Origin: Leptotrichia massiliensis
Lineage (GTDB): Bacteria; Fusobacteriota; Fusobacteriia; Fusobacteriales; Leptotrichiaceae
DNA: 64,000 nucleotides
Reading direction: 5' to 3'
Assembly (NCBI RefSeq): GCF_900104625.1
Contig: NZ_FNVZ01000005.1
Location: forward strand, 1,550,001 to 1,614,000
The translations under genes were made by a program, and so were the position numbers. The notes beneath the pieces were generated by a model, which saw nothing but the letters and a program-made list of their open reading frames with translations, ran no database searches and was not told the origin of the DNA. Shown here piece by piece: positions 9,058 to 54,616 of the stretch. Position 1 is the first letter of the stretch. The number at the start of each line of letters is the position of its first letter.

Positions 9058-10101
9058 TTACCAAAAAATATATTTTCTTCTAAAAATTGGAAATTTCCTA
9101 TCTACGTATTCATTAACATAGTATTGTGCTTCAGCGTAACTTCCCATTATATTTAAAAAATCCAAAGAATTCTTAAAAATTCCTATTTTTTCGTCTTCCA
9201 CTTTAAGTGCAATAATATAAGGAAATATTCTATTAAAATAATTAAGTTTTTCTTCTTCGGTTTCAAATTTGTCTATTTTATTTTTCTCAGCAGTTTCAAA
9301 ATACATTTTTAGTCCTTCGATGTACTCCATTTTTCGCCGTCCTGAAACAGTATATTTTCCTATTGCCTTTTCATAAATCAAAAATATTATTCCCAAAATA
9401 AATAGACTTAATCCCAAATAAATCTGCATATACATCATTACGGCAATAATTATTCCCAAAATAACCATTACATATAAAATTTTTAAAATCCCTTTAGGCA
9501 TTCTATGTATATACTCAAGCCATATAAATATAAACATTGTACCAATAACTGCACTTCCAAAACTCCCCTGTAATAATTGTAATAATACAAAAATTATAGA
9601 TATTGCTATTCCAAATATTATTGGAATAAAGAATATATAATTATTTTTATAGATTGTCCTTTCATATTTTTTCTCCAAAAAATACACAATACGATTTTTG
9701 TACCCAATCATCTTGAGTTTATTCTCAAATAACTCATTTTCCGAAAGAACATCCAGCAAATTATTTTCTTCCTCAAACAAAGTTTCTTTTCTCAATTTCA
9801 AATTATCCCTATTTTTCTTATTCAAAACATACTTCTTATTTCCTGTACTAGCTTCGTCAACTTCGGAAATATATCCTTTCAGTATTAACGATAATATGCC
9901 TATTTTTATTATTTCTTTTGAATCCCTCTCTCCATTAATATATGCTACGAACATTGAAGAAATATAATCTGGCTCTGTAAATTCAGGAATAACTGTTTTC
10001 CTTTTCGGATCTCTTCCAAAAAAGTGCCACGTTAAGACAGAGTACACTGCAACAAGTAAAACCACAATAATTTCAATTATAATTATATAAGATTTATTCA
10101 T
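9058..10101 (-). CDS. Short DUF2207-family membrane protein (cytoplasmic half only)
   Basis: A 347-residue paralogue of the two full-length DUF2207 proteins upstream, lacking their signal peptide and extracellular domain. It starts with a membrane helix (residues 5-25) running into the family phrase LTWHFFGRDPKRK, then PEFTEPDYISSMFVAYINGERD. Central hydrophobic helices lie around 155-240, followed by the GKYTVSGRRKMEYIEGLKMY motif. The Gly-rich tail is also missing; it ends FPIFRRKYIFW. AAGGAG before the ATG at 10101 shows this is a designed start and not a decayed 5' end. It has its own promoter candidate (10224-10252) behind the terminator of the preceding gene. Confidence 0.82.
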   Translation of the reverse strand: MNKSYIIIIEIIVVLLVAVYSVLTWHFFGRDPKRKTVIPEFTEPDYISSMFVAYINGERDSKEIIKIGILSLILKGYISEVDEASTGNKKYVLNKKNRDNLKLRKETLFEEENNLLDVLSENELFENKLKMIGYKNRIVYFLEKKYERTIYKNNYIFFIPIIFGIAISIIFVLLQLLQGSFGSAVIGTMFIFIWLEYIHRMPKGILKILYVMVILGIIIAVMMYMQIYLGLSLFILGIIFLIYEKAIGKYTVSGRRKMEYIEGLKMYFETAEKNKIDKFETEEEKLNYFNRIFPYIIALKVEDEKIGIFKNSLDFLNIMGSYAEAQYYVNEYVDRKFPIFRRKYIFW

Positions 10102-10223
10102 TAATAAACTCCTTAAAATTCAAATTGTATCTTTTCATATTCCATCCCTTTCATTTTCTGTATATTCTGTTCAATTTATCTGTATTCCTAAACAAATCTG
10201 AAAAATTAATATTTTCTACCAAT

Positions 10224-10252
10224 ATTATAAACTAAAAAACAATACTTTACAA
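10224..10252 (-). promoter_or_regulatory. Sigma-70-type promoter for the short DUF2207 gene
   Basis: On the minus strand TTGTAA (10247-10252) is followed by a 17-bp spacer and a perfect TATAAT (10224-10229). It lies directly downstream of the terminator of the preceding paralogue and about 120 nt before the ATG at 10101, so the short gene is probably expressed separately. Confidence 0.6.
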
Positions 10253-10262
10253 TAAGAAAAAA

Positions 10263-10282
10263 AGCCAGTATTTCTACCAGCT
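10263..10282 (-). terminator. Intrinsic terminator overlapping a stop codon
   Basis: The minus-strand RNA pairs AGCUGGUA (10275-10282) with UACUGGCU (10263-10270) around a GAAA tetraloop, including two G-U pairs. Seven Ts follow (As at 10257-10263). The left arm contains the final Ser-Trp codons, and the TAG stop straddles arm and loop. Confidence 0.8.
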
Positions 10283-12166
10283 TCCTCCACCTCCTCCGCC
10301 AGAACCTCCGCCAGAGAAGCCGCCTCCACTAAAGAAGCCTCCTCCGCCTGAGCCACTCTTAGATGAACTAAATTTTTCACTCATAATTTTCGATTTTCCA
10401 CTGCTGTAACTTCTTGAAAATATGTTCGTAAAACTGTTGTTACTATAAGCATACATATGAGTGTGGCTATTTATATAAGATTCATTTATGTCGAAGTTGT
10501 ATAATTTTATTGTTTTTTTCATTAATTTTATTGCCTCATTTTTTACTCCAAGTGCTACTGCAAAAGGCAAAATTCCATTAAAATATTCGATTAATTCCTT
10601 TACATTATCAAATTTTCTTATCTGATTCTCTTCTGCTGTTTTTATATACATTTTCATACCTTTCAGGTACTCTTTTTTTCTTAAGCCTTCATTTGTATAT
10701 TTACCAATTAACTTTGCATACACAATAAACAATATTACAAAATATGTTGTAAAAACAAAAATCTCAATTCCCTGATAAAAAGACACACCTAAAATCACTA
10801 TAATTACTAATCCTATTAACAATTTTTTACTAACTGTTATCCAAATTCTATGAAAAAATGAGCCTAATGTTATAAGTATATACAATATTATAAAAGGATT
10901 GAAAATCTCAAAATTTGTCTGTGAAAATATAAAAATCATAAAAACAGGAGCTGCACAATAAAACGGAACTAAAAAACTTCCATTATTTTTATAAATTATT
11001 TTATGATACTTATCCTTTAAAATTTCAATGATACTATTTGCCTTATTATAAATTCTTTTTTCACTACCAAAAATATCATTCTTTTCTGAAGAAAGAGAAT
11101 CAAGCAGCATCCTTTCCTCTTCCGCCAGCTCAGTTTCCTGTGTATACACAGTTTTGGATTCCTTGTTATATTTAATTTCACCATTAACTCTATTTGCTAC
11201 TATAAAGCCTTTTGTAAGTAATGTAAATATTCCTGCATTTAATATCTCCACTGTGTCTCTTTCACCATTTATATATGCCGCAAACATTGGAGAAATGTCT
11301 TTTGGTAAATTAAATTCTGGAATTACAGATTTCCCTTGCGGATCTTTTCCAAAAAACTTCCACGTTACAATAGAATATATTGTTAAAAATAACAATAAAA
11401 ATGGCAAAATTATTATTGCTGGATTGGAAAGATATACAATTTTTAGCTTATCTACTAAAGTTGGACTTATTTTATCCGTTTTCAAATTTAGCATAAATGT
11501 AAGCCCATTTTTGGCCTCCAGCTCTTTTGTTGAAATGTGTATTTCCTCATCATTTTCTAAAATGTCATAATTTTCACCTTTTTCTCCATAACTTCCAGTA
11601 TAAACTTCCAACTTTTCAATTTCATTTTTTTTAATTTTTTGCCCATCAGGAAATCTTATAATAACACTTGCCTGTTCAATAGGAACATTCCAAAACTGTC
11701 CAATAGCATTGTAATACACTTGATAAATTCCATCTTTTTCAAACACAGCATTATAAATATCGTAATTCAGCTCATATACGCTCTCAGTCTTATACAAATT
11801 TACAAGTTCTGTTTCGGAACCTATTCTGTACCTTATTCCTTCATAAAAATGATTTTTTGTATATTCTTCATCCTTTCCGTCCCTCTTTATCCAATTCATT
11901 TTGATAAAAGACTTATGAACATCAAATCCAAACCTTTTTGAACGCAAAGGAATATCTCTATAAATCCCGTGCTTAAACTCTTCGCCAAACTGATAATCAA
12001 TCACTTCATTTACAGTCAGCGTGCCATTTTTATTAATTTGCACTGTAACTTCATAATTTCTTATTTTTTCACTATGCAATATTACTGCAACAAGCCTGCT
12101 TGAATTAAATAAAAACATCACCATAAACATAAATAATATTGAAAATTTTTTATCTTGAAATATCAT
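10274..12166 (-). CDS. DUF2207 membrane protein, full length with Gly-rich tail
   Basis: A 630-residue membrane protein. The signal or anchor helix is at residues 8-27, followed by the DUF2207 extracellular domain (about 33-235) with KIRNYEVTVQINKNGTLTV and GIYRDIPLR. A membrane helix near 250-270 leads into the WKFFGKDPQGK hallmark and a cytoplasmic region. Two or three central helices (about 400-475) and KYTNEGLRKKEYLKGMKMY follow. The tail is Ser/Gly-rich and ends GGGGGGSW, as in many DUF2207 proteins. The family is often found with LemA, as here; its biochemical role is unknown. It lies behind the terminator of the next paralogue and has its own promoter candidate (12225-12251). Confidence 0.88.
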   Translation of the reverse strand: MIFQDKKFSILFMFMVMFLFNSSRLVAVILHSEKIRNYEVTVQINKNGTLTVNEVIDYQFGEEFKHGIYRDIPLRSKRFGFDVHKSFIKMNWIKRDGKDEEYTKNHFYEGIRYRIGSETELVNLYKTESVYELNYDIYNAVFEKDGIYQVYYNAIGQFWNVPIEQASVIIRFPDGQKIKKNEIEKLEVYTGSYGEKGENYDILENDEEIHISTKELEAKNGLTFMLNLKTDKISPTLVDKLKIVYLSNPAIIILPFLLLFLTIYSIVTWKFFGKDPQGKSVIPEFNLPKDISPMFAAYINGERDTVEILNAGIFTLLTKGFIVANRVNGEIKYNKESKTVYTQETELAEEERMLLDSLSSEKNDIFGSEKRIYNKANSIIEILKDKYHKIIYKNNGSFLVPFYCAAPVFMIFIFSQTNFEIFNPFIILYILITLGSFFHRIWITVSKKLLIGLVIIVILGVSFYQGIEIFVFTTYFVILFIVYAKLIGKYTNEGLRKKEYLKGMKMYIKTAEENQIRKFDNVKELIEYFNGILPFAVALGVKNEAIKLMKKTIKLYNFDINESYINSHTHMYAYSNNSFTNIFSRSYSSGKSKIMSEKFSSSKSGSGGGGFFSGGGFSGGGSGGGGGGSW

Positions 12167-12224
12167 ATTTTATCTATCCTTATTTTTAGTTATTCTAAAA
12201 CTTTTTCAGTATCAAACTTTAACA

Positions 12225-12251
12225 ATTATACAAATTTAAAATTTATGTAAA
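12225..12251 (-). promoter_or_regulatory. Promoter candidate for the 630-residue DUF2207 gene
   Basis: Minus-strand TTTACA (12246-12251) and TATAAT (12225-12230) are separated by 15 bp, a short spacer with good hexamers. The site lies between the upstream gene's terminator and the ATG at 12166. Confidence 0.45.
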
Positions 12252-12261
12252 AATCGTAAAA

Positions 12262-12281
12262 AGCCAGTATTTCTACCAGCT
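12262..12281 (-). terminator. Second stop-codon-overlapping terminator
   Basis: The 20-nt hairpin is identical to the one at 10263-10282: AGCUGGUA / GAAA / UACUGGCU, followed by five Ts. It again uses the last Ser-Trp codons and the TAG stop of a DUF2207 gene as its 5' arm. Confidence 0.75.
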
Positions 12282-14225
12282 TCCTCCACCTCCCCCGCCG
12301 GAACCTCCGCCAGAGAAGCCTCCACCACTTGAGAATCCGCCTCCGCCAAAACCGCTTCCGCTCGAATTTCTAGAGTTTTCTCTCAAAGTGCTAAATCTTT
12401 CTTCTGCTATTTCATTGTATGCATTGTTATAACCTCTTGAAATCATATCTGATAAAAAGAAATTATTGTATGAATTAAAATGTACTCCTCTATTTATGTA
12501 AGAATATGTACTTTCATCAAAATCATAAAGTTTTATTGTATTCTTCATAAGTTTTACTACTTCATTCTTTACACCAAGAGCTACCGCATAAGGCAATATA
12601 CCTTTAAAATAAGCTACCAGCTCATCTACATCATTAAATTTCATAATCTGATTTGCTTCAGCAGTCTTTATGTACATTTTCATGCCATCCAAGTATTCTT
12701 TTTTTCTCATTCCATCAACAGTATATCTTCCAATTATTTTTGAATAAACAGCATACATTGCCATAATTATTCCAATTATAATGAAATTTAAAACTCCATA
12801 TATTAATGAAAAGAATAATACTGCTATCCACTTAATAATTTTTAAAAATTTACTATTATTTCCATAAATATTATTGATAATTGAAAAAATCGTATTTAAT
12901 ACTATTCCAAAGAAAATAGCAACCATAACTAGAGAAACTGCTCCGGAAATGCCATCAGAAATACCTGCCGTTCCGCCGCTTGCAGTTGACGAAATCATAA
13001 AAACTATAATCATACCGACAATAAAGACAATATTAAAAATGTTATTATCCTTGTAAACTTTCTTTTTATACTCTCTTTCAAATGATTTTAATATTTTATT
13101 TGAAGCGTCGTAAAGACTTCTTTCTTTTTTAAATATATATCCATTATCAGAAAGAGCATTAAAAACAATCTTTTCTTCTTCTGCTAATTCAGGTTTGCTT
13201 TTTCTACTGTCAGACAATGTATATTCTACATTTCTTCCATTACCTTCTTCGTCATTAGCTTCAACATAACCTTTAGAAAGCAATGAAAGCACTCCGATTG
13301 TCAATATTTCTTTTGGCTCCCTTTCTCCATTGATGTAAGCCGCATACATGGCAGAAATATCCTTTGGTATGTTAAATTCAGGAACAATTGCCTTTTTATC
13401 CACATCTCTTCCAAATATATACCACGTTACAAATCCATAAATTGCTAGAATTATTATTATAATCGGTCCTACAGCAATTAAAGGATGAGCATAATAAAGT
13501 GTCTGTAATTTATCCCAAAATGTTGGGCTTATATTATCTGTTTTTAAATTCAGACGAAAACTTAATCCATTATATGCCTCTAAAACCTTATTTGTTTTAA
13601 TTTCAACAGTTCCATTATTCAAATTTGTAATATAATCTTTTCCATTTTGTCCATATTCACCTGTAAAAATATCTAATTGTCTAATTTCATTTTTTAAAAC
13701 AGGTTCTCCATTTGCAAATTTTATATTTACCGCAGCTTTTTCAATAGGAACTTGCCAAAATTGACCAATTGCATTAAAGTAAACCTGATAGATTCCATTT
13801 TTTTCAAATACTGCATTATAAATCACGTAATTAAATTCGTATCTATTTACGCCATTTTCCACAAATCTGTCTGCAGAACCAACCCTATATCTAATACCTT
13901 CATCAAAAAGTTTCGTAGAATATTCTTCAGAAATACCGTTTCTCTTTATTGAATTCATTTTTATATAAGATTTGTAAATATCCACGCCATTTTTCTTTGA
14001 ACGTAATGGAATATCCCTATAAATCCCGTGCTTTGCCGAACCGTCAAATTCATAGTCAATCACTTCATTTACTGTCAAAGTCCCATTTTTATTCATCTGA
14101 ACTGTAACTTCATAATTCTTTATTTTTTCAGAAATTAATGATTTTGCATTAAAAAAAAACAATGCGAAAAATACAAAACTTATTGAAAAAATACTCTTCC
14201 ATTTTCGATTGCTAAAACTCTTCAT
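12273..14225 (-). CDS. DUF2207 membrane protein, second full-length paralogue
   Basis: About 650 residues, with the same architecture as its downstream paralogue. There is a signal peptide after MKSFSNRKWK, then an extracellular DUF2207 domain (KIKNYEVTVQMNKNGTLTV, GIYRDIPLRSKK). The juxtamembrane phrase TWYIFGRDVDKKAIVPEF is followed by cytoplasmic and membrane segments, KYTVDGMRKKEYLDGMKMY and a Gly-rich tail ending GGGGGGSW. I choose the ATG at 14225: GGGAGGAAATTACT precedes it and it gives a clean signal peptide, while the in-frame start at 14294 would add a non-hydrophobic leader. It overlaps the end of the upstream gene by 14 nt, suggesting translational coupling. Function unknown. Confidence 0.88.
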   Translation of the reverse strand: MKSFSNRKWKSIFSISFVFFALFFFNAKSLISEKIKNYEVTVQMNKNGTLTVNEVIDYEFDGSAKHGIYRDIPLRSKKNGVDIYKSYIKMNSIKRNGISEEYSTKLFDEGIRYRVGSADRFVENGVNRYEFNYVIYNAVFEKNGIYQVYFNAIGQFWQVPIEKAAVNIKFANGEPVLKNEIRQLDIFTGEYGQNGKDYITNLNNGTVEIKTNKVLEAYNGLSFRLNLKTDNISPTFWDKLQTLYYAHPLIAVGPIIIIILAIYGFVTWYIFGRDVDKKAIVPEFNIPKDISAMYAAYINGEREPKEILTIGVLSLLSKGYVEANDEEGNGRNVEYTLSDSRKSKPELAEEEKIVFNALSDNGYIFKKERSLYDASNKILKSFEREYKKKVYKDNNIFNIVFIVGMIIVFMISSTASGGTAGISDGISGAVSLVMVAIFFGIVLNTIFSIINNIYGNNSKFLKIIKWIAVLFFSLIYGVLNFIIIGIIMAMYAVYSKIIGRYTVDGMRKKEYLDGMKMYIKTAEANQIMKFNDVDELVAYFKGILPYAVALGVKNEVVKLMKNTIKLYDFDESTYSYINRGVHFNSYNNFFLSDMISRGYNNAYNEIAEERFSTLRENSRNSSGSGFGGGGFSSGGGFSGGGSGGGGGGSW

Positions 14226-15549
14226 AGTAATTTCCTCCCAATGCATCATTACGAGCCCTTTCCAATATCTCGTTTGTAAATATCTCATTCCCAAACGATT
14301 TCATAAATTTATCATTTTTATAAATAAATATATTAAGCATATTTTCAATATATTCCTTTTTATCATTAAATCCTGATATTTCTATAGATTTTTCCACCAT
14401 CTTTACAACATGTTTTTGCACTTTCAAAGCTTGTGAAAATGGTAAAATCTTTTTAAAATATGAAATCAACTCTTCTATATTCTCAAATTTTCTAGTTTCA
14501 CCACTTTTTATGTATTTCTTCAATCCTTCTAGATTTCTTTTGACTTCAATTCCTCTATCTGTATATTTTCCAATATTTTTAAAATAAAAAAACTGAAGAA
14601 TAGCAACTAAAGTTAGAATTATCCCAGATATTCCAAGTCCATAAACCATAAGTCCAGAAAAAAATAATATAATAACTTCAAATAGACCTATTAAAATAAA
14701 AACTGCTAACCTGATAACCATCGGAAACATTTTATTTTTTAAAATTACAAAAATCAAACCTGATAATAACATTGCCCAAAAATACATAGGAAAAAAAATA
14801 ATTAATGGCACAATTCCCTCAAATCCTTCAAAAATAAAAAGAAAAATTCCAAACAAAAATATTATAATTATATAAAATATTCGGAATCTCCAATTTGAAG
14901 TATAAAGCCTTTTATCCCATTTTTCCCTATTTACAGACTTTATTCCAATTAAATACAAGAAAGCGTAGTTTCCTCTCCCATCAAATTTTTCCTTTAAAAC
15001 CTCAAGAATTTTAAGAAGCTGGTTCATAATAGGCTTTTTATGCCCAAGAATAGTGTCCTTATCATATTCAATTAAAAATTCCAGAACCATTCTCTCCTCT
15101 TCCGAAAGTTCCCACTGCCTGCACCCATAATCATTGACTTTTTCCATATTGAACCCATATTTCTTCTTGGTTATCTGTCTATAATATTTTTCAATGTCAA
15201 TGATTTCAACAGTTTTTTTATCTTTTTTTATTTCGTATTCATCTTCTGTCATTTTTAAATTTTTCTTAACTTTATTATATTTTTTCAAGTCAACATAATC
15301 CTCAATTATTACAAATCCTTTGCTTATCAACTCCAACAATCCAATATATACCAAATAATCTGGTATTTCTTTCCGAGAACTATTTATATAAGTAGCCATC
15401 ATTGCCGAAATTTCTTTAGGTGGCTCTGACACCGACATAATTTCATCGACAGAATCCTTCCCAAATTTTTTCCACGTAATATAGCTATAAATCACCAATG
15501 TTAATAGCATTATCAATAAAATTATTATTTGAGTCAAACTTATTTCCAT
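14212..15549 (-). CDS. Short DUF2207-family membrane protein, divergent
   Basis: A 445-residue protein matching only the cytoplasmic half of DUF2207 proteins. It has an N-terminal membrane helix (6-26) running into SYITWKKFGKD, then PPKEISAMMATYINSSRKEIPDYL. Two hydrophobic blocks (about 225-265 and 285-330) are followed by IGKYTDRGIEVKRNLEGLKKY. It has no extracellular domain and no Gly-rich tail (ends NYYEEF). AAAGGAAATAAC precedes the ATG, so the start is real. It lies 43 nt after lemA and is coupled to the next full-length paralogue. It may partner the full-length copies, but that is inference. Confidence 0.8.
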   Translation of the reverse strand: MEISLTQIIILLIMLLTLVIYSYITWKKFGKDSVDEIMSVSEPPKEISAMMATYINSSRKEIPDYLVYIGLLELISKGFVIIEDYVDLKKYNKVKKNLKMTEDEYEIKKDKKTVEIIDIEKYYRQITKKKYGFNMEKVNDYGCRQWELSEEERMVLEFLIEYDKDTILGHKKPIMNQLLKILEVLKEKFDGRGNYAFLYLIGIKSVNREKWDKRLYTSNWRFRIFYIIIIFLFGIFLFIFEGFEGIVPLIIFFPMYFWAMLLSGLIFVILKNKMFPMVIRLAVFILIGLFEVIILFFSGLMVYGLGISGIILTLVAILQFFYFKNIGKYTDRGIEVKRNLEGLKKYIKSGETRKFENIEELISYFKKILPFSQALKVQKHVVKMVEKSIEISGFNDKKEYIENMLNIFIYKNDKFMKSFGNEIFTNEILERARNDALGGNYYEEF

Positions 15550-40073: not shown

Positions 40074-41150
40074 TTAGTATTCAGAATCTTTAAATAATTT
40101 TATTCCAACTACTAAAAATATAAGTAACGGAATGAAACATGCCGCATAAATTGGAACTGCTCCAGATACTGCCATCGAACGTAAAATCGTGCTGACACCA
40201 TAATAGGCGTAACCAATTATTACAGATAATCCTATATTTACAGCTGCACCTCCCCTTACGTATCTACTTCCTAGTGAAAGTCCGATTAGACACATTACGA
40301 AAGAAGCCAATGCAAATGATATTCTGTAATAAAATTCAATTCTCAAATTTAACGAATCTGCTCCAACCCGTGTAAAATAAACTACTTTTTCACGTAATTC
40401 AGGCATTGTCAAATTCTTTGCTTTTACTGGACTTGCTAGGATATTGTCCATTGATGCGATAAATTTAAAATTCTTTGTATCAATCTGTTTTGTAACATTT
40501 GTTTTACTATCATATTCTTTTAAATCCGTAAAAGTCCATTGGTTTGTTTTTGGATTTATTTTGGCTGATGGTGAAGTGTAGATTTTTTTTATCTGGCTAA
40601 ATCCTTTTTCAAATTTTAAAATTTGAATAAACTCCATAGTTCCAGTATTCTTATTGGCATGTTCACTAAAAAGAACTGTACTTTTGTTAATTTTTACAAA
40701 AATGAATTTCTTTTCTGATTTTACTGGCTCTTTATTATCAATTTTTAATGATTTTAAATTTTCTTTTTTTGTATTTGATTTCCCTAAAACATCATAATTT
40801 AAATAAAAAACACCTAAACTTACTAGAAATGAAAAAATCATGGGAAATAATGCTATCCTTGCAAAACTTATCCCACTTGTTTTCATCGCTGCAATTTCTA
40901 ATTGTTTTGCCATTTTGCTTATACATAAAAGGCTTCCTAACAGTACTCCAAGAGGAGCAGTATTTGTTATAATTTCAGGTACTCCGTATCTAAGATATCT
41001 TATGGCATCTCCACCTTTCATTTTTCCATCCATAAGCCATCCTGTAAGACTAATACTTTCAGCTAGTAAAAATATTAGAAAAAACATCATCATTCCCAGA
41101 ATAAAGCTTTTTACATAATTTATAATTATATATTTATCTAACTTGTTCAT
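40074..41150 (-). CDS. lptG: LPS export permease, LptG-like (LptF/LptG family)
   Basis: Inner-membrane half-permease that with LptF and the LptB ATPase extracts lipopolysaccharide from the inner membrane. 358 residues: helices at about 12-35, 60-80 and 95-118, a periplasmic beta-jellyroll (about 130-260), then three helices near the C-terminus. The motif ISKMAKQLEIAAMKTSGIS is the coupling helix that contacts LptB. LptG rather than LptF is inferred from order (second) and from closer resemblance of the N-terminus; the two may be swapped. It follows lptF by 13 nt. Confidence 0.85.
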   Translation of the reverse strand: MNKLDKYIIINYVKSFILGMMMFFLIFLLAESISLTGWLMDGKMKGGDAIRYLRYGVPEIITNTAPLGVLLGSLLCISKMAKQLEIAAMKTSGISFARIALFPMIFSFLVSLGVFYLNYDVLGKSNTKKENLKSLKIDNKEPVKSEKKFIFVKINKSTVLFSEHANKNTGTMEFIQILKFEKGFSQIKKIYTSPSAKINPKTNQWTFTDLKEYDSKTNVTKQIDTKNFKFIASMDNILASPVKAKNLTMPELREKVVYFTRVGADSLNLRIEFYYRISFALASFVMCLIGLSLGSRYVRGGAAVNIGLSVIIGYAYYGVSTILRSMAVSGAVPIYAACFIPLLIFLVVGIKLFKDSEY

Positions 41151-41163
41151 ACTCCTCCTTTCG

Positions 41164-42261
41164 TTAATTTCCTTTATATTTCTTTATTGAAAAATATATA
41201 CATAATATAAATAAAACAAAATTAGGAATCCACATTGCAATGTTTGCAGGTACATTATTCTTTAGTACCATAATTTTTGCATAACTTGCCATTCCTATAT
41301 ATCCAAATATAACTATTAAACTTATTCCAAAACTTATTCCTCTTCCACTTCGTCTATGCCCTACTGAAAGTAATACTCCCAGCCAGCACAAAAATGTACT
41401 TGCAAGTGGTCCAATAATTCTTTGATAAATTTCCACTTGTGCTTTTAATGCCGCTTCCTTTTCTTCAGGATTTTTTATATTTTTTTTATAAAATTCATTT
41501 AACTCTTTTATATTCATTTCATTACGGCTCTTTTTCTTTTCTTTTGTGTCTTCTCTAAAAAAAGTTGTGATTGGAATTTCTTGCTCCTGGTATTCAGCCG
41601 ACACTCGACTATTTCCATTTTTTTCAAAAGCGTATCCTTTTACTTTCTGTAATCTTATTATCCCTGGATCAAATTTTGCATTTTCTGCTAAAAATACTAT
41701 TGGATAAGGATTATCTCCACGTTTATTTATAATCAAAAAGTTTTTAGCTGTAGCTTTTTCATTGTTAACTTCGTCAATGTAAAATCCAAATCCTTTTTCT
41801 TCGTTTGTTAAAAATACTTTTGCTTCTGATAATGAACTTGGCTTTGAAGCTAAAACTTGTTTTGTCTGAGCATTTATATTCTTTAGAGCACGTGGATTTA
41901 CATAAAGCTCAAGTCCAAGTCCAATAAGAGTAAGTATAACTCCAAAGATAAATGCTGGACGAATTATTCTAAAAAGTCCTATTCCAGAACCTTCCATAGC
42001 AACGATTTCATTAGTTTCAGAAAGCCCACCATACACAAGCATTACTCCCAAGAATGCTCCCATCGGAATTGTCTGGACAAGAACTCCTGGTACAGCATAA
42101 AACAAATAGTCAATTATAGATATAAATGGCAAATCACTTGCAAACAATCGCTCCATAACTTCCATTACCACATTTAACATCATAATGAATGTAAATATGC
42201 TTATTCCAAATAACGACGGTAATATAAGTGAATTGTAAATATATCTGTCAATTATTTTCAT
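41164..42261 (-). CDS. lptF: LPS export permease, LptF-like (LptF/LptG family)
   Basis: The other half-permease of the LPS exporter, about 365 residues. It has the same topology: three N-terminal helices, a periplasmic domain (about 130-270) and three C-terminal helices. The coupling helix is SETNEIVAMEGSGIGLF. The ATG at 42261 (MKIIDRYI) is chosen because AAGGAAATTGATAAAA precedes it; the in-frame TTG at 42270 lies too close to that site. It directly precedes lptG. lptB is encoded 8 kb away in the same window. Confidence 0.87.
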   Translation of the reverse strand: MKIIDRYIYNSLILPSLFGISIFTFIMMLNVVMEVMERLFASDLPFISIIDYLFYAVPGVLVQTIPMGAFLGVMLVYGGLSETNEIVAMEGSGIGLFRIIRPAFIFGVILTLIGLGLELYVNPRALKNINAQTKQVLASKPSSLSEAKVFLTNEEKGFGFYIDEVNNEKATAKNFLIINKRGDNPYPIVFLAENAKFDPGIIRLQKVKGYAFEKNGNSRVSAEYQEQEIPITTFFREDTKEKKKSRNEMNIKELNEFYKKNIKNPEEKEAALKAQVEIYQRIIGPLASTFLCWLGVLLSVGHRRSGRGISFGISLIVIFGYIGMASYAKIMVLKNNVPANIAMWIPNFVLFILCIYFSIKKYKGN

Positions 42262-42355
42262 TTTTATCAATTTCCTTTTTTATTTTTCTTTTAAAATTTA
42301 TACTTCTTTAATATTTAAGTAAGTAAAAACAACATAAATTTAAAATTTAAGAAGT

Positions 42356-47236: not shown

Positions 47237-49852
47237 CTATAATTTTTCAGTTACAAATTCAAATGCTTTTTTAACAGCTTCTTTTACAGCAGTTCCATCT
47301 TTTCCACCAGCCTGTGCAAAGTCAGGACGTCCTCCACCGTTTCCGCCAGCGACTTGTGCTGCAATTTTTACTATTTCTCCAGCCTTCACTTTTGAAATTA
47401 AGTCTTTCGTAACTCCAACTACAAAAACTGCCTTTCCATTGTTATTTGTTCCCAAAATGATGATTCCAGACTGCATCTTTTCTTTTCCTCTGTCTACAAT
47501 CTCTTTCAATTCATCAACATTTTTATCCTCAAATGAAGATTTTAATACTTTCACATCGTTTACTGTTTCCACATTTTCCAGCATTTCATTAATTTCGTAT
47601 TTTACAAGTTTTGTTTGCATTTCCTCATGCACTTTTACTGCTGCTCTCATATCTCCAATATATTTTTCGATAATATCGACAACATTTTTTTCGTCTGTTC
47701 TAAAAATATCAGATATTTCCTTTATTTTATCTTCAAGCCTATTCACATAATTTAGACTTTTATATCCAGTTGTAGCTGTAATTCTACGTGTTCCTGAAGC
47801 AATTCCATTTTCAGATTCGATATTGAATAATCCTATTTCTCCGGTTGATTTAACGTGTGTTCCCCCACAAAGTTCAATTGAATATCCGTCAATTTCAACA
47901 ACACGAACTATATCTCCATATTTATCTGAAAATAATGCCATCGCTCCTCTTGCTTTTGCATCTTCAATATTTTCATAATTTATTTTTACTTGTAAATTTG
48001 ATAAAATAATGTCATTTACACCTTTTTCAATTTTTTCAATCATTTCTGGACTGATTGCTTCGTAATGTGAAAAGTCAAATCTTAATTTTTCATCATCCAC
48101 AAGCGATCCAGACTGCTCTACATGTGTTCCTAGATTTTCTCTTAAAACTTTGTGTAAAATGTGTGTAGCTGTATGATTTCTCTGAATATCTTTTCTACGG
48201 TTTACATCAATTTGCATTTTCACTTCCATGCCTACAGCTGGAGCAATTCCCCTTGTGATTTCAACCTGATGAATAAAGACATCATGTTTTTTAACCACAT
48301 TTACAACTTTTCCTTCAAATTCTCCAGAAGTAATAATTCCCGTATCAGCAACTTGTCCTCCAGATTCAGCATAAAACGGAGTTTTATCAAAAATCATCTC
48401 ATATCCTGAGATTCCTTCACTTTTGGCAATATGTAAAAGCGTGCTTTTTTCCTCAAAATTTTGTAAATATCCAGTAAATTCTGTTTTCCCATGTTTTTCA
48501 AAAAATTCATCTATAAATTCATCTTTTATCATATCAGAAATTGTTGTTCTGCTGTCTTTTGAACGCTGTACCTGTTCTGCCAGCTTTTTCTCAAATTCTT
48601 CTTCTGATGCTTCAAAGCCTTGATTTTCCAAGATTAATTTTGTAAGTTCAAACGGGAATCCAAAAGTATCATACAGTTTGAAAGTAAGTTCAGCTGGCAA
48701 TTCCTTCTGATTTGCTGTTTTTAATTTCTGAATTTCTTCTTCCAGCATTTCAGTTCCATTTTTCAAAGTTGTTGCAAATCTTTCTTCTTCCAGTCTTATA
48801 ACTTTTTCAATGTATTCCTGCTTTTCCGCTAACTCTGGATATGCTTCATTCATTGTCTCAAGAACATAAGGCACTAATTTATAAAGAAATATATCTTCTT
48901 TTTCAAAAACTTTCTGTTTTGCAGAACTTCCAGCTCCAAAAGCACGTCTTATAATTTTTCTTAAAATATATCCACGCCCTTCATTTGATGGCAACACTCC
49001 ATCTCCAATCAAAAATACTGAGGCTCTAACGTGATCGGCAATAATTTTTACTGCTTCCTCATTTTCATTTCCTTGAATTTCAAGTACAGATTTTATCCCT
49101 TTTGTAATATTTGTAAATAAATCCGTATCAAAGTTGTTATCCTTGTTTTGTACAACCGAAGCAATTCTCTCAAGTCCTGCCCCTGTGTCAATATTTTTTT
49201 CTGGAAGTGGCACAAGTGAACCGTCTTCAAGCCTATTCCATTCAGTAAATACCAGATTCCAGATTTCTAAAAATCTATCTCCGTCATCTCCTGGCTTTCT
49301 GTCAGCTTCTTCATTATTTTTTCCCATATTCTGAGTATCGTAATAAATTTCGCTACAAGGCCCACAAGATCCCACAGGTCCTGCTGCCCACCAGTTATCC
49401 TCTTCTCCAAGCCTAACAATTCTCTCTGCTGGCACTCCAATTTCCTTGTTCCAGATTTCATAAGCCTCATCATCTGTTTTATACACAGACACCCAAAGTC
49501 TGTCCTCTTCCAGTTTCAATACTTTCGTTATATATTCCCAAGACCACTCAATAGCTTCCTTTTTAAAATAATCTCCAAATGAGAAATTACCTAACATTTC
49601 AAAAAATGTATGATGTCTAGGCGTTCTTCCTACATTTTCCAAGTCATTAGTTCTAATACATTTCTGATAAGTAGTAATTCTTTTAAATGGTGCCTCCTTT
49701 TCTCCTAAAAAGAACGGCTTAAACGGTACCATTCCTGCTACAGTCAGCAATAAGCTCTTATCATCTGGTATAAGCGACGCACTTTCAAAATGCTTATGCT
49801 CTTTCGATTTAAAAAAATCTACAAAACTTTTTCTTATTTCATTTCCTGTCAT
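47237..49852 (-). CDS. alaS: Alanine-tRNA ligase
   Basis: Charges tRNA-Ala. 871 residues, full length. The class II catalytic core opens with IRKSFVDFFKSKEHKHFESASLIP and TVAGMVPFKPFFLG. The editing domain has zinc ligands in NHTATHILHKVLR and CGGTHVKSTGEIG. The C-terminal DHHA1 region ends GGNGGGRPDFAQAGGKDG. The ATG at 49852 is fixed by homology, but the nearest AGGAG (49883-49887) is 30 nt away with a short palindrome between them. No T-box leader is visible. Confidence 0.97.
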   Translation of the reverse strand: MTGNEIRKSFVDFFKSKEHKHFESASLIPDDKSLLLTVAGMVPFKPFFLGEKEAPFKRITTYQKCIRTNDLENVGRTPRHHTFFEMLGNFSFGDYFKKEAIEWSWEYITKVLKLEEDRLWVSVYKTDDEAYEIWNKEIGVPAERIVRLGEEDNWWAAGPVGSCGPCSEIYYDTQNMGKNNEEADRKPGDDGDRFLEIWNLVFTEWNRLEDGSLVPLPEKNIDTGAGLERIASVVQNKDNNFDTDLFTNITKGIKSVLEIQGNENEEAVKIIADHVRASVFLIGDGVLPSNEGRGYILRKIIRRAFGAGSSAKQKVFEKEDIFLYKLVPYVLETMNEAYPELAEKQEYIEKVIRLEEERFATTLKNGTEMLEEEIQKLKTANQKELPAELTFKLYDTFGFPFELTKLILENQGFEASEEEFEKKLAEQVQRSKDSRTTISDMIKDEFIDEFFEKHGKTEFTGYLQNFEEKSTLLHIAKSEGISGYEMIFDKTPFYAESGGQVADTGIITSGEFEGKVVNVVKKHDVFIHQVEITRGIAPAVGMEVKMQIDVNRRKDIQRNHTATHILHKVLRENLGTHVEQSGSLVDDEKLRFDFSHYEAISPEMIEKIEKGVNDIILSNLQVKINYENIEDAKARGAMALFSDKYGDIVRVVEIDGYSIELCGGTHVKSTGEIGLFNIESENGIASGTRRITATTGYKSLNYVNRLEDKIKEISDIFRTDEKNVVDIIEKYIGDMRAAVKVHEEMQTKLVKYEINEMLENVETVNDVKVLKSSFEDKNVDELKEIVDRGKEKMQSGIIILGTNNNGKAVFVVGVTKDLISKVKAGEIVKIAAQVAGGNGGGRPDFAQAGGKDGTAVKEAVKKAFEFVTEKL

Positions 49853-50530: not shown

Positions 50531-51265
50531 CTAATCAAGCTTGAAGTTATCCCCAAGATACACTCTTCTAGCTGTTTCATCATTTGCAATCTGCTGTCCT
50601 GTTCCTGCAATCAAAATTGTACCTTCTGCCATTATATAGGCTCTTTCCGTAATTCTCAATGTTTCACGCACATTATGATCGGTAATCAGTATTCCAAGCC
50701 CACGTTCCTTTAACTGCATTATTATATTCTGAATATCCTCAACTGCAATCGGATCTACTCCCGCAAAAGGCTCATCAAGCAATATAAAGTCTGGATTTGT
50801 AGAAATAGTTCTAGCAATCTCCACACGTCTACGTTCCCCTCCAGAAAGTGCATATCCCAAACTTTTTGCTACATGAGATAACTTGAATTCCTCAATTAAA
50901 TTCTGCATTGTGGCAATTCTTTCTTTCTTATTAACTCCTCGCATTTCAAGAACCGATACAATATTTTCCTCCACAGTCAAGTTTCTAAAAACAGACGCCT
51001 CCTGTGGCAAATATCCGAGTCCAAGTCTAGCTCTTTTATACATAGGCAACGTTGTAATTTCCTCTCCATTGTACATTACTCTTCCATGATTTGGTCTTAC
51101 AATTCCTGTAATCATATAAAAGGTAGTTGTCTTTCCCGCTCCATTAGGTCCAAGAAGTCCTACAACCTCGCCCTTTTCCATTGACAGACTCACACTTTTC
51201 ACAACTTCCCTGTTTTTATATATCTTTTTCAAGCTATCGGCTTCTATACTAATTTTTCTAGCCAT
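50531..51265 (-). CDS. lptB: LPS export ABC transporter ATPase LptB
   Basis: Cytoplasmic ATPase that powers the LptFG permease. About 244 residues. ABC motifs are all present: Walker [11 protein letters not shown]-loop region [15 protein letters not shown], signature [12 protein letters not shown], Walker [14 protein letters not shown] and the switch histidine ITDHNVRE. The phrase [10 protein letters not shown] and the overall length match LptB/YhbG rather than amino-acid transporters. The ATG at 51265 (MARKISI) follows AGGAGAAGAT; the in-frame ATG at 51295 does not have a site. Confidence 0.95.
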
Positions 51266-51391
51266 ATCTTCTCCTATTTTAAAATTATCATTCAAATAAC
51301 TTTACTTATCGAAAGTTACCACTTCGCTATATTATAAATCATTTTTGCTTTTTTTTCTACTTTTTTTTAAAATTTGCAAAAAGTCAGATTA

Positions 51392-52174
51392 TTATTTTAT
51401 CCTTCTATCCATATATTCCACATTCAAATATATTACACACTGTAAAATTACAAACAATATCAATATAAAAGTTCCAAAAAATTCAAAAAAAACTGTACCA
51501 AATATTGTACTAAAAAATAAATATCCAACATTTAATCTTTCTAACATTGGGTATGTTAAACCTAAAAAACTTTCTGTAGTAAAAAAAATAAAAATTAGAT
51601 ATGTAATAACGAAAAATATTATTTTCAGCCAGTTTCTTTTCATCAAATGTAAATTATAATCCCAAGATTCCTTTAAATTAAACGGTCTTGCAGAAAATAA
51701 TGGAATAAAATAAAACATATACAACCAAAAAATTACCATCGCTATCCAATATATTGCAAGAAAAACTAAGAAAAGTTCATCAAAAAATGTCAGATAAGGA
51801 AAAAAAGACTCTCCAATATAACTAGCTATATAGTATATAAAATATAAAAAGAAAAATTTTGAAGCTGACTGTCCTAGTCTTAAATAATTTTTCTCCTCTA
51901 TTTTAAAAATTATTTTTTGATAAAACAAAAAAAGTACCAAATAATAACAAAAGTTAAAAATCGAAAATAAATTTAACATAGGAGAAAGTGAAGTATTCTG
52001 AAAAAGATATACTCCTATAATTTTAATACAATCTATTAAAAAGAAAAATAGTATCCACCACACACCATTTATGTCAAAAAGTAAACTTTTAAAAATAAAA
52101 AAAGTATATTTTATTTGCTGAAAAATATTTAATTTTTTTTCTGTCAATTTTTCTTGTAATTCTTTCATATCCAT
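51392..52174 (-). CDS. Hypothetical integral membrane protein
   Basis: 260 residues with about six hydrophobic helices (around 35-55, 65-85, 105-125, 130-160, 185-210, 225-250) and a charged N-terminal segment. No family is recognised with confidence; the layout is like small YesL/DUF-type membrane proteins. It lies between the LptC/LptA-like gene and lptB, so a link with LPS export is possible but only by position. A terminator separates it from the upstream gene, and no strong ribosome site is seen (AAAGGA is 14 nt from the ATG). Confidence 0.65.
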   Translation of the reverse strand: MDMKELQEKLTEKKLNIFQQIKYTFFIFKSLLFDINGVWWILFFFLIDCIKIIGVYLFQNTSLSPMLNLFSIFNFCYYLVLFLFYQKIIFKIEEKNYLRLGQSASKFFFLYFIYYIASYIGESFFPYLTFFDELFLVFLAIYWIAMVIFWLYMFYFIPLFSARPFNLKESWDYNLHLMKRNWLKIIFFVITYLIFIFFTTESFLGLTYPMLERLNVGYLFFSTIFGTVFFEFFGTFILILFVILQCVIYLNVEYMDRRIK

Positions 52175-52267: not shown

Positions 52268-54616
52268 CTAAAACTGTTTCTGATAAGAAGCACCACCGTA
52301 TCTTAATGTTGCAACATTTCTATCTCCATTTTTGCTCCAAGAAATTGGCACATCTATTGTTCCCTTGTTCACATTTACTCTTACTGACGAAGGTAAGTTG
52401 CCGCCATCTTCTGGAACATAAATATTTTTTGCGGCTCTAACAAGCATTTCGTGTGCTGATTCTGTCGGAACACTCACATTAAAAGTTCTTTGAGCTGTAT
52501 CTACACCAGCTTTAGCTATTGCAGTCAAAGTTACTCCTTTTGTTCCGCCACCATAAAATTGCTTGTTAATTCTTCCAGATACTGAAAACAGGCTTGAATT
52601 TGAAGAACGCCATTTTATTGTAACTGGAACTCCATTTGAGGCTGTCATTGATTTTGGCAAGTTAATTCCTCCTCTTGTACTAACCTCTCCTTCAGGAATT
52701 GACAATTTGCCTATTACTTCCTGAGTTGCCGCTGCATTTTTAGGATCTGACCGTCCTTGTTCCTCATTATTCTGAATTTCATATTGCATCTGAATATTTC
52801 CTTCGTTTTCAAGGATTCTCTTATCCATATCGTAAATTGCACTTTTAGATGAAATTTGTGTTTTCCCTTGATAAGTCACTACATTTCCATTTAATTTTAT
52901 TTTTTTATCTTTCAAATAAATTGTAGCTTTATCCGCACTTGTATTAATCGCTCTGAACTGCGGCAATGTACTTACAATTTTTACATTGTTTCTGGCATAC
53001 CCTTCCTGCTTATTCATATCCATATAAAGATAATTTGCTGTCATCTTTGTATTATTCTTAAAGTCAACCATAACCTTGTCCCTTGCAAGAATAAGGTTTC
53101 TTCCTGAATCCATCTCATTATACTGAGAATCAAGCGTAATATCCTTATAAGTCATATGCACATTTTCCTTAATTTCACTACGCGTAATACTCATATTACT
53201 TCCATTTTTATGTGAAACGAAATAAACTTTGGCAGTATTTCCTATGAAATTTACTGCTTCTGATTCTACAAGTGGTGTTGGATCATTTACAAGATCTTTT
53301 ATATTTCCACGAATTTTACCTTTAACATGTCCATCAAACCTAAATTCCTTTTTCTCAAAACTTCCACGTCCTGTGTCAGATGTAATTCTATCTCCTTGAA
53401 CACTTGTCATTTCCATTTTATTGGCAAAAATATCTTTTGAAATTGTGTTCATTGTCCCATTTGCACCATGTACATTAAAGTTCTGCTTTTTAACGTTAAA
53501 TGATCCGTTCATTGTGGCATCTCCAGTTGGGAAAACATATATAAGTCCTGTTCCATCCATTTTATAGTCATCGTAATTTGCAGTATAGTAATCATTTGTT
53601 GTAAGTGTTTCTGTTTTTAAATCATAAACTCCACTTCTGTATGTTCCTGTTGTTTTTCTTGGTAAATAATTGTATGTACCATTTCCATCACCATTCAATA
53701 TTCTAGCAATTTCATCATAGAATACATGATCTCCTGTTACTATTAAAGTTGGACTTGTATATTTTACATGTCCTCTTCCATCAACCTGTTTTTTCTTTAC
53801 AAAGTATGAAGCTGTGTCTGCCGAAATCACACTATTTTTACCAGTATAGACAATATTTCCCTGCCCATCTATACGCTCATCCTTCATATAATAGTCAACT
53901 TTATTTCCTGTTAATTTATTTTCAGGATCTGTATAAATCACATTTCCTTCTGCATTTCCAATTTTATTTATATCATCATAACGCATTTTGTTAGCACGCA
54001 GTTCTCTTTTTGTCTGTTCTTCTTTGTAAATTACATGACCTTCTGCATCTGACACTTTTGTTGGATCATGATATGTAATTTTGTCTGCTGTCAAAGTCTT
54101 TTTATCTTTCTTGTTATTATAACTTGCATTTCCGATTGCTACGATTGTTTCAAATTTCGTTGTTGTTTCAACTCTATCTGCTTCAGAAACTGTATCATCA
54201 ACAGTATTTATAAGTTTTGTCCTTACTGGTGAAATTAATAAATCGCCTTGTTTCTTGTATTCTACACGTTCTGTATAAATTTCCCATTTTTTGTCCTTAG
54301 TTGTTCCAACGACTTTTTTCATTAATGTAACATCAGATGTTTTAGTATTGACTTCGCCTTCTTTTCCAGAAATTATCATCTGTTTCTTTACCAAATCTAC
54401 TATTACATTTTTGAATTTGATTACTTCATCTCCTTCAGATCCAATCTGTTCATCCGCATAAATGATAGCATCATCTTTTAATCTATACACAACTTTTTTT
54501 GCTTTCATATCCTTTTGCATCTGTTCAAGCGGTGTCGGAATTTTTTTAAAGAATACCGCATATATAAAATATATCAGTATTAATACAAGTCCTCCATAAG
54601 CTATTTTTTTCCACAT
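52268..54616 (-). CDS. Large LptC/LptA (OstA-like) periplasmic protein with C-terminal Ig-like domains
   Basis: 782 residues. An N-terminal membrane anchor (about 5-24) is followed by an LptC-like segment (about 40-130). A long array of LptA/OstA-type beta units of about 32-36 residues follows, with recurring phrases such as GNAEGNVIYTD, DGQGNIVYTG and DGRGHVKYTS up to about residue 600. Residues about 630-718 look like an atrophied bacterial Ig domain (LSIPEGEV, IKWRSSNSSLFSVSGRINKQ, RTFNVSVP), and a shorter second one ends the protein. LptC (about 190) and LptA (about 180) are normally separate. It may serve as the LPS bridge. It lies 24 nt after mutS. Confidence 0.8.
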   Translation of the reverse strand: MWKKIAYGGLVLILIYFIYAVFFKKIPTPLEQMQKDMKAKKVVYRLKDDAIIYADEQIGSEGDEVIKFKNVIVDLVKKQMIISGKEGEVNTKTSDVTLMKKVVGTTKDKKWEIYTERVEYKKQGDLLISPVRTKLINTVDDTVSEADRVETTTKFETIVAIGNASYNNKKDKKTLTADKITYHDPTKVSDAEGHVIYKEEQTKRELRANKMRYDDINKIGNAEGNVIYTDPENKLTGNKVDYYMKDERIDGQGNIVYTGKNSVISADTASYFVKKKQVDGRGHVKYTSPTLIVTGDHVFYDEIARILNGDGNGTYNYLPRKTTGTYRSGVYDLKTETLTTNDYYTANYDDYKMDGTGLIYVFPTGDATMNGSFNVKKQNFNVHGANGTMNTISKDIFANKMEMTSVQGDRITSDTGRGSFEKKEFRFDGHVKGKIRGNIKDLVNDPTPLVESEAVNFIGNTAKVYFVSHKNGSNMSITRSEIKENVHMTYKDITLDSQYNEMDSGRNLILARDKVMVDFKNNTKMTANYLYMDMNKQEGYARNNVKIVSTLPQFRAINTSADKATIYLKDKKIKLNGNVVTYQGKTQISSKSAIYDMDKRILENEGNIQMQYEIQNNEEQGRSDPKNAAATQEVIGKLSIPEGEVSTRGGINLPKSMTASNGVPVTIKWRSSNSSLFSVSGRINKQFYGGGTKGVTLTAIAKAGVDTAQRTFNVSVPTESAHEMLVRAAKNIYVPEDGGNLPSSVRVNVNKGTIDVPISWSKNGDRNVATLRYGGASYQKQF

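What the first reader, a model, noticed from the sequence alone, without database searches (positions are those of the whole stretch)
52268..54616. Giant LptC/LptA-like protein with terminal Ig-like domains
One 782-residue protein combines the anchor and LptC-like start, a long array of OstA-type beta units and bacterial Ig-like domains at the end. If the units stack as in LptA, this single anchored chain could span the periplasm as a covalent LPS bridge, replacing LptA oligomers, with the Ig-like tail docking to LptD or peptidoglycan. This architecture differs from the textbook system.
Basis: partly seen in the sequence, partly recalled or inferred. Interest (0 to 1): 0.75.

Follow-up and report, generated by a model that had tools for sequence, protein, structure and literature searches.

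The report
One-piece LPS bridge in Fusobacteriota
A Leptotrichia-type bacterium makes the periplasmic LPS-transport bridge as one long anchored protein instead of the separate LptC and LptA parts of the textbook system, and nearly all LPS-making members of its phylum do the same with bridges of different fixed length.

Summary
In detail: a 782-residue ORF occupies these coordinates, on the minus strand (54616 to 52268). It has one N-terminal membrane helix, an LptC-like start above NCBI's LptC cut-off, a continuous OstA/LptA-type beta array (about residues 41-604), a short low-confidence linker, and a C-terminal module with one recognised Ig-like domain plus a second small beta domain.

Two AlphaFold2 models together cover the array without a break and match solved LptA, LptC and the LptD jellyroll. 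The genome has one LptF/LptG pair, LptB and one LptD-like ORF, but no separate lptA or lptC that profiles could find. The gene lies just upstream of lptB in a mutS-giant-lptB-alaS order kept across the phylum. Of 98 Fusobacteriota genomes, the 89 with this protein are exactly the 89 with LptF/LptG; the 9 without it lack LpxC too.

Best reading: a covalent LptC-LptA bridge of fixed length, a new variant of the Lpt system. Array length varies from 390 to 892 residues, roughly LptC plus 1.4-4.6 LptA. The Ig-like tail is present only in Leptotrichiaceae and a few others, so it is not needed for the bridge; its docking role is untested. LPS transport itself was not tested.

The parts
52268..54616 (-). 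782-aa LptC-LptA array protein (covalent LPS bridge candidate)
   Evidence: ORF; Pfam/NCBIfam; relatives in 89 of 98 phylum genomes
54548..54613 (-). N-terminal membrane helix (residues 2-23), inner-membrane anchor
   Evidence: AF2 helix 2-23 (pLDDT 50-60 here); hydrophobic peak at residues 5-22
54209..54583 (-). LptC-like start (residues 12-136)
   Evidence: TIGR04409 above its curated cut-off
52805..54496 (-). continuous antiparallel beta array (residues 41-604), LptC/LptA jellyroll type
   Evidence: AF2 models: 1-470 (pLDDT 79, pTM 0.66) and full length, 323-604 (pLDDT mostly 60-85); Foldseek to LptA/LptC/LptD
53711..53998 (-). best LptD_N/LptA domain match (residues 207-302)
   Evidence: Pfam PF03968
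52784..53047 (-). best Pfam LptC match, distal part of the array (residues 524-611)
   Evidence: Pfam PF06835
52745..52804 (-). linker between array and tail (residues 605-624)
   Evidence: pLDDT below 50 over 604-621
52466..52636 (-). aBig_2 atrophied Ig-like domain (residues 661-717)
   Evidence: Pfam PF20578, 36.5 bits against cut-off 27; pLDDT about 67-84
52271..52456 (-). second small C-terminal beta module (residues 721-782)
   Evidence: AF2 pLDDT about 71-88; no family match
50531..51295 (-). lptB, ATPase of the LPS exporter
   Evidence: TIGR04406, 366 bits against cut-off 240
51392..52174 (-). 260-aa hydrophobic protein of unknown family between the bridge gene and lptB
   Evidence: no family match; absent from this place in the other genera checked
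40074..41150 (-). LptF/LptG-family permease (first of pair)
   Evidence: Pfam PF03739, 225 bits
41164..42270 (-). LptF/LptG-family permease (second of pair)
   Evidence: Pfam PF03739, 234 bits
54641..57325 (-). mutS, conserved upstream neighbour
   Evidence: synteny in the loci compared; name from sequence knowledge
47237..49852 (-). alaS, conserved downstream neighbour beyond lptB
   Evidence: synteny in the loci compared; name from sequence knowledge

Best explanation
The protein is LptC and several LptA units in one chain. The N-terminal helix holds it in the inner membrane next to LptB2FG. The first jellyroll units take LPS as LptC does, and the following OstA units form one unbroken hydrophobic groove towards the outer membrane. 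The last units hand LPS to the jellyroll at the N-terminus of the LptD-like barrel. Bridge length is therefore set by the gene (here about LptC plus 2.5 LptA equivalents, some 14 nm of array if each LptA is 4 nm), not by LptA polymerisation. The Ig-like tail is an optional module beyond the distal end of the groove, perhaps for positioning at the outer membrane or cell wall. Shown: sequence families, predicted fold, gene order, missing lptA/lptC, co-occurrence. Inferred: LPS as cargo, direction, span, handover to LptD, tail role.
For: LptC equivalog above cut-off and LptA/OstA domains in one ORF; in one relative (L062) both the LptC and the LptA equivalog models exceed their cut-offs in a single 899-aa protein. 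Own-genome searches with LptD_N, LptC and OstA_2 hit only this ORF and one LptD-like ORF of 1228 aa. Continuous predicted strands 41-435 (pLDDT 79 overall, pTM 0.66) and 323-604. Foldseek: LptA 2r1a/2r19 TM 0.74-0.79 at 1.3-2.4 A in the best chains, LptC 3my2 and 4b54_B TM 0.71, LptD jellyroll structures. Gene order mutS-bridge-lptB-alaS across the phylum; E. coli has lptC-lptA-lptB. Presence matches LptF/LptG exactly (89 with both, 9 with neither) and LpxC in 87 of those 89. In G097 a second copy lies beside an LptD-like gene.
Against: No experiment. The full-length AF2 model alone was poor in residues 22-322; continuity rests on two overlapping models from a 5-row alignment. In the 470-residue job one of five models reached 79 mean pLDDT and the others 39-67. 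A strongly diverged separate LptA could escape the profiles, since PF03968 does not reveal LptD in some Fusobacteriaceae. The nine genomes without the protein all belong to one family and may reflect one or a few losses. Single-sequence hhalign against E. coli LptA and LptC was weak.
Confidence: 0.85

Rival explanations
1. It is an enlarged LptC that still works with a separate, highly diverged LptA not recognised by current profiles.
For: NCBIfam calls it LptC above cut-off and LptA only below its cut-off; LptD N-termini in part of Fusobacteriaceae already escape PF03968. Outside the phylum, G113 has an enlarged LptC-like (657 aa) next to an enlarged LptA-like (812 aa) gene.
Against: No third OstA-type ORF in the genome with three profiles at E up to 1-10; a 41-604 array is already longer than LptC plus two LptA; among the hits listed for 98 genomes nearly all lie in bridge- or LptD-sized frames. 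One candidate 173-aa frame in a short-bridge genome was below cut-off and lies among unrelated small secreted proteins.
Confidence: 0.08
2. It is a periplasmic lipid bridge for phospholipid or another lipid rather than LPS (an AsmA/TamB-like role built on an OstA fold).
For: Long single-chain hydrophobic-groove proteins are known for phospholipid transport (general knowledge of YhdP/TamB/YdbH; PMC8593681 was seen only in the search list).
Against: Best matches are LptC/LptA/LptD, not AsmA; gene next to lptB; lost together with LptF/LptG and LpxC.
Confidence: 0.03
3. The chain does not span the periplasm alone; two or more copies overlap or join end to end, and the long array serves flexibility or wide-periplasm states.
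For: Length varies more than twofold between relatives, 390 to 892 residues, which is odd if one copy must exactly fit the gap; LptA-type folds join head to tail (PMC6164715).
Against: N-terminal anchoring in the relatives makes end-to-end joining awkward; even the shortest form equals LptC plus 1.4 LptA, and LptC-LptA-LptD with one LptA is modelled at about 15 nm, the E. coli periplasm width (PMC10863985).
Confidence: 0.1

Closest known systems
E. coli LptC + LptA (lptC-lptA-lptB operon)
   Same: Inner-membrane anchor, OstA-type jellyroll units in series, gene just upstream of lptB (there lptC-lptA-lptB), partner LptF/LptG and LptD-type receiver
   Different: Two proteins with LptA copy number unknown or variable in E. 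coli; here one chain with all units covalently joined, plus an Ig-like tail
LptD N-terminal jellyroll
   Same: Same fold family (PF03968) and Foldseek matches
   Different: No barrel follows here; N-terminal anchor in the inner membrane instead of a cleaved signal and outer-membrane barrel
Long LptA/LptC-like proteins of other phyla (e.g. G113 loci, 657 and 812 aa)
   Same: Extended OstA arrays
   Different: LptC-like and LptA-like parts remain separate genes
Diderm Firmicutes (Negativicutes, Halanaerobiales) Lpt cluster
   Same: OstA-domain proteins in a cluster with LptB outside Proteobacteria
   Different: Two separate OstA proteins of about 200 aa (PMC5007114)
YhdP/TamB/YdbH AsmA-like bridges
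   Same: Single-chain anchored proteins proposed to carry lipid across the periplasm (general knowledge)
   Different: Different fold family and cargo; no AsmA match here

Membership tests
LptC (TIGR04409/PF06835) | Score above the curated LptC cut-off | tested here: met
   57.7 bits against 38; Pfam LptC 35.1 against 21
LptC (TIGR04409/PF06835) | Single N-terminal membrane anchor followed by one jellyroll of about 165 residues | tested here: not met
   Anchor present but the jellyroll continues for about 560 residues
LptA (TIGR03002) | Score above the curated LptA cut-off | tested here: not met
   33.9 against 71.7 in this protein; met in relative L062, 92.3
LptA (TIGR03002) | Soluble periplasmic protein with cleaved signal | tested here: inconclusive
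   An N-terminal helix of about 22 residues without an obvious signal-peptidase site; judged by eye, no signal predictor available
OstA/LptA jellyroll fold | Antiparallel beta jellyroll similar to solved LptA/LptC | tested here: met
   Foldseek TM 0.7-0.79 to LptA, 0.71 to LptC
Lpt system | Genomic partners LptB, LptF, LptG, LptD and lipid A synthesis | tested here: met
   LptB, LptF/G in window; LptD-like ORF identified by its N-terminal domain only; LpxC in the genome
Lpt system | LptD barrel domain recognised by profile | tested here: not met
   PF04453 finds no barrel in any of 98 genomes; the 1228-aa ORF has the LptD_N domain
Lpt system | Binds and moves LPS | not testable with these tools
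   needs crosslinking or reconstitution

The most novel reading that the evidence does not exclude
In Fusobacteriota the Lpt bridge is a genetically encoded ruler: one chain whose array length (1.4 to 4.6 LptA equivalents beyond LptC) is tuned to the envelope of each lineage, with the Ig-like tail fixing its distal end to the outer membrane or cell wall in Leptotrichiaceae.
Probability: 0.3. Interest if true: 0.8.

Novelty: new variant of a known kind. Interest (0 to 1): 0.62.

Why it matters
How many LptA copies make the bridge in E. coli is still stated as unknown (PMC10094684, PMC10863985). A phylum in which the number is fixed by one gene, with natural versions from about 1.4 to 4.6 LptA equivalents, makes the relation between bridge length, periplasm width and LPS flow directly testable. 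It also suggests that subunit exchange of LptA is not a necessary part of the mechanism, and that drugs such as thanatin that break LptC-LptA and LptA-LptA contacts would find no such joints here. The phylum includes Fusobacterium nucleatum. No paper describing this was found in the searchable open library.

Tried and rejected
A separate lptA or lptC in the own genome: none. A 173-aa OstA-like frame in the short-bridge genome G049: just below cut-off and among unrelated small secreted proteins, rejected as LptA. LptD barrel profile PF04453: no hit in the phylum. Comparing array and E. coli LptA/LptC by hhalign with single sequences: too weak to use. Apparent LptF-LptG fusions of about 720-736 aa: checked in five genomes with such frames and found to be two ORFs separated by a stop, so rejected. 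A search centred on E. coli was not possible. The full-length AF2 model left residues 22-322 unresolved; a 1-470 fragment resolved most of them. Literature searches for a natural LptC-LptA fusion or for Fusobacteria Lpt proteins gave nothing specific. A cryo-tomography search for periplasm width in F. nucleatum listed papers but none was read for a value. The first tail/array table picked a wrong domain in a few rows and was corrected.

Full report
Observation. The interval 52268-54616 holds one ORF of 782 codons on the minus strand, starting with ATG at 54616; the plus strand has no long frame there. Pfam finds LptD_N/LptA in four stretches, LptC in three, OstA_2 in two and aBig_2 once (661-717), all above cut-off. 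NCBIfam's LptC model scores 57.7 bits (cut-off 38) with its best stretch at 12-136, and the LptA model 33.9 (cut-off 71.7) at 203-312. A residue-similarity autocorrelation of the array gives a period of 29-31 with z about 6 and 5 against shuffles. So the described composition is real and beyond chance. 'Ig-like domains' in the plural is only half shown: one is recognised, and a second small beta module follows that no family names.

Where it lies. The genome is about 2.54 Mb in five contigs; its closest named relatives are Leptotrichia species at 95% protein identity. The gene is followed by a 260-aa membrane protein of no known family and by lptB; mutS precedes it and alaS lies further on (mutS and alaS are named from sequence knowledge). 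LptF/LptG lie as a pair at 40074-42270 in the same window. In E. coli the order is lptC-lptA-lptB; here one gene stands where lptC and lptA would stand.

No separate lptA or lptC. Searches of the whole own genome with PF03968, PF06835 and PF13100 at E up to 1-10 hit only this ORF and a 1228-aa ORF on another contig, whose N-terminus is LptD_N and which is followed by a long region expected to be the barrel. The classical LptD barrel profile finds nothing in any Fusobacteriota genome, so the barrel is diverged and its LptD identity rests on the N-terminal domain and size.

Structure. A full-length AF2 model from five homologous rows gave antiparallel strands through residues 323-604 (block pLDDT mostly 60-85) and a confident tail, but pLDDT below 50 for 22-322. 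A second job on residues 1-470 gave mean pLDDT 79.1 and pTM 0.66, with a membrane helix (2-23), a second helix (29-39) and consecutive strands from 41 to 435; only the best of its five models was that good (the others 39-67). The two models overlap in 323-435. Foldseek against solved structures gives for the 1-470 model LptA (2r1a and 2r19, TM 0.74-0.79 by target length, rmsd 1.3-2.4 A for the best chains), LptC (3my2 and 4b54_B, TM 0.71) and LptDE structures; the full-length model gives the same families. The 604-621 stretch is a low-confidence linker, so the tail is a separate module rather than a cap on the array.

Phylum. A profile of 14 relatives finds the protein in 89 of 98 Fusobacteriota genomes; in about 190 genomes sampled from other phyla the listed hits have no comparable coverage, and most lie in frames of 170-470 residues. 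Longer outside frames that were opened are LptD or LptD-like (G150, G290), a secreted OstA_2 protein of 810 aa (G158), or separate enlarged LptC-like and LptA-like genes (G113). Two others show the usual separate LptC, LptA, LptB (G104, G151). This sample is thin for each phylum, so uniqueness is not proven.

Gene order mutS-bridge-lptB-alaS is kept in nearly all the Fusobacteriota loci read, over several families. Genome G097, from the most distant family, carries two such proteins, one beside mutS and one beside an LptD-like gene; this physical link to LptD supports the role.

Co-occurrence. LptF/LptG are found in 89 of 98 genomes, exactly those with the bridge protein. LpxC is found in 87; the two exceptions are small or incomplete genomes (G001, G068). 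The nine genomes without the bridge (G065, G082, G083, G091-G096) lack LpxC and LptF/G as well. A naive 2x2 probability for LptF/G is 6e-13 and Fisher's test for LpxC gives 3e-11, but all nine belong to one family and may trace to one or a few losses, so these numbers overstate the evidence.

Length and tail. In 38 relatives read to full length the array is 390-892 residues. With about 165 residues for LptC and 159 for mature LptA (general knowledge of E. coli), this is LptC plus 1.4 to 4.6 LptA; the window protein is about LptC plus 2.5. Taking 4 nm per LptA (PMC10863985), the arrays would be about 10, 14 and 22 nm for the shortest, this one and the longest (inference). The same paper models LptC-LptA-LptD with one LptA at about 15 nm and calls that the average E. 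coli periplasm. Short forms of 430 and 468 aa occur in two separate lineages of a MutS tree, at the same gene position. The Ig-like tail occurs in all Leptotrichiaceae forms read and in genera g18, g20 and g21 of Fusobacteriaceae, but not in the rest; the tree needs at least two changes. It is therefore an optional accessory.

Mechanism. Established biology: LptB2FG extracts LPS, LptC and LptA jellyrolls make a hydrophobic groove, the LptD jellyroll receives it (reviewed in PMC6164715). The number of LptA copies is unknown (PMC10094684; PMC10863985). From the anatomy, this protein does the LptC and LptA jobs in one chain. What is shown: families, predicted fold, position, missing alternatives, co-inheritance. 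What is inferred: cargo, direction, span, contact to LptD, tail function.

Novelty. NCBI's own model names this protein LptC, so the family assignment is not new. I found no paper in the open library that describes a natural LptC-LptA array or its variable length. I rate it a new variant of a known kind.

Noticed in passing
G065, G082, G083, G091-G096 (same family as the window genome): Nine small Leptotrichiaceae genomes lack LpxC, LptF/LptG and the bridge protein together, i.e. a natural loss of the whole LPS pathway inside an LPS-making family.
   Followed up: partly
L063 and L064 (genome G097): Two full-length bridge proteins in one genome of the most distant family, one beside mutS and one directly beside an LptD-like gene.
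   Followed up: partly
L057, L074, L075: Short bridge versions of 430 and 468 aa at the same gene position in two separate lineages, with no recognisable separate LptA in those genomes.
   Followed up: partly
L016:3533-7219 (-): The LptD-like protein of this phylum has a recognisable N-terminal jellyroll but a barrel that neither PF04453 nor any other Pfam model detects.
   Followed up: partly
window 51392-52174 (-): A 260-aa hydrophobic protein of unknown family lies between the bridge gene and lptB in Leptotrichia species but not at this place in the other genera compared.
   Followed up: no
L079:2161-6566 (-), genome G113, outside the phylum: Adjacent enlarged LptC-like (657 aa) and LptA-like (812 aa) genes, suggesting that long bridges built from two proteins exist elsewhere.
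   Followed up: no
window 9058-15549 (-): A run of four related large membrane proteins, two of them ending in glycine/serine-rich tails.
   Followed up: no
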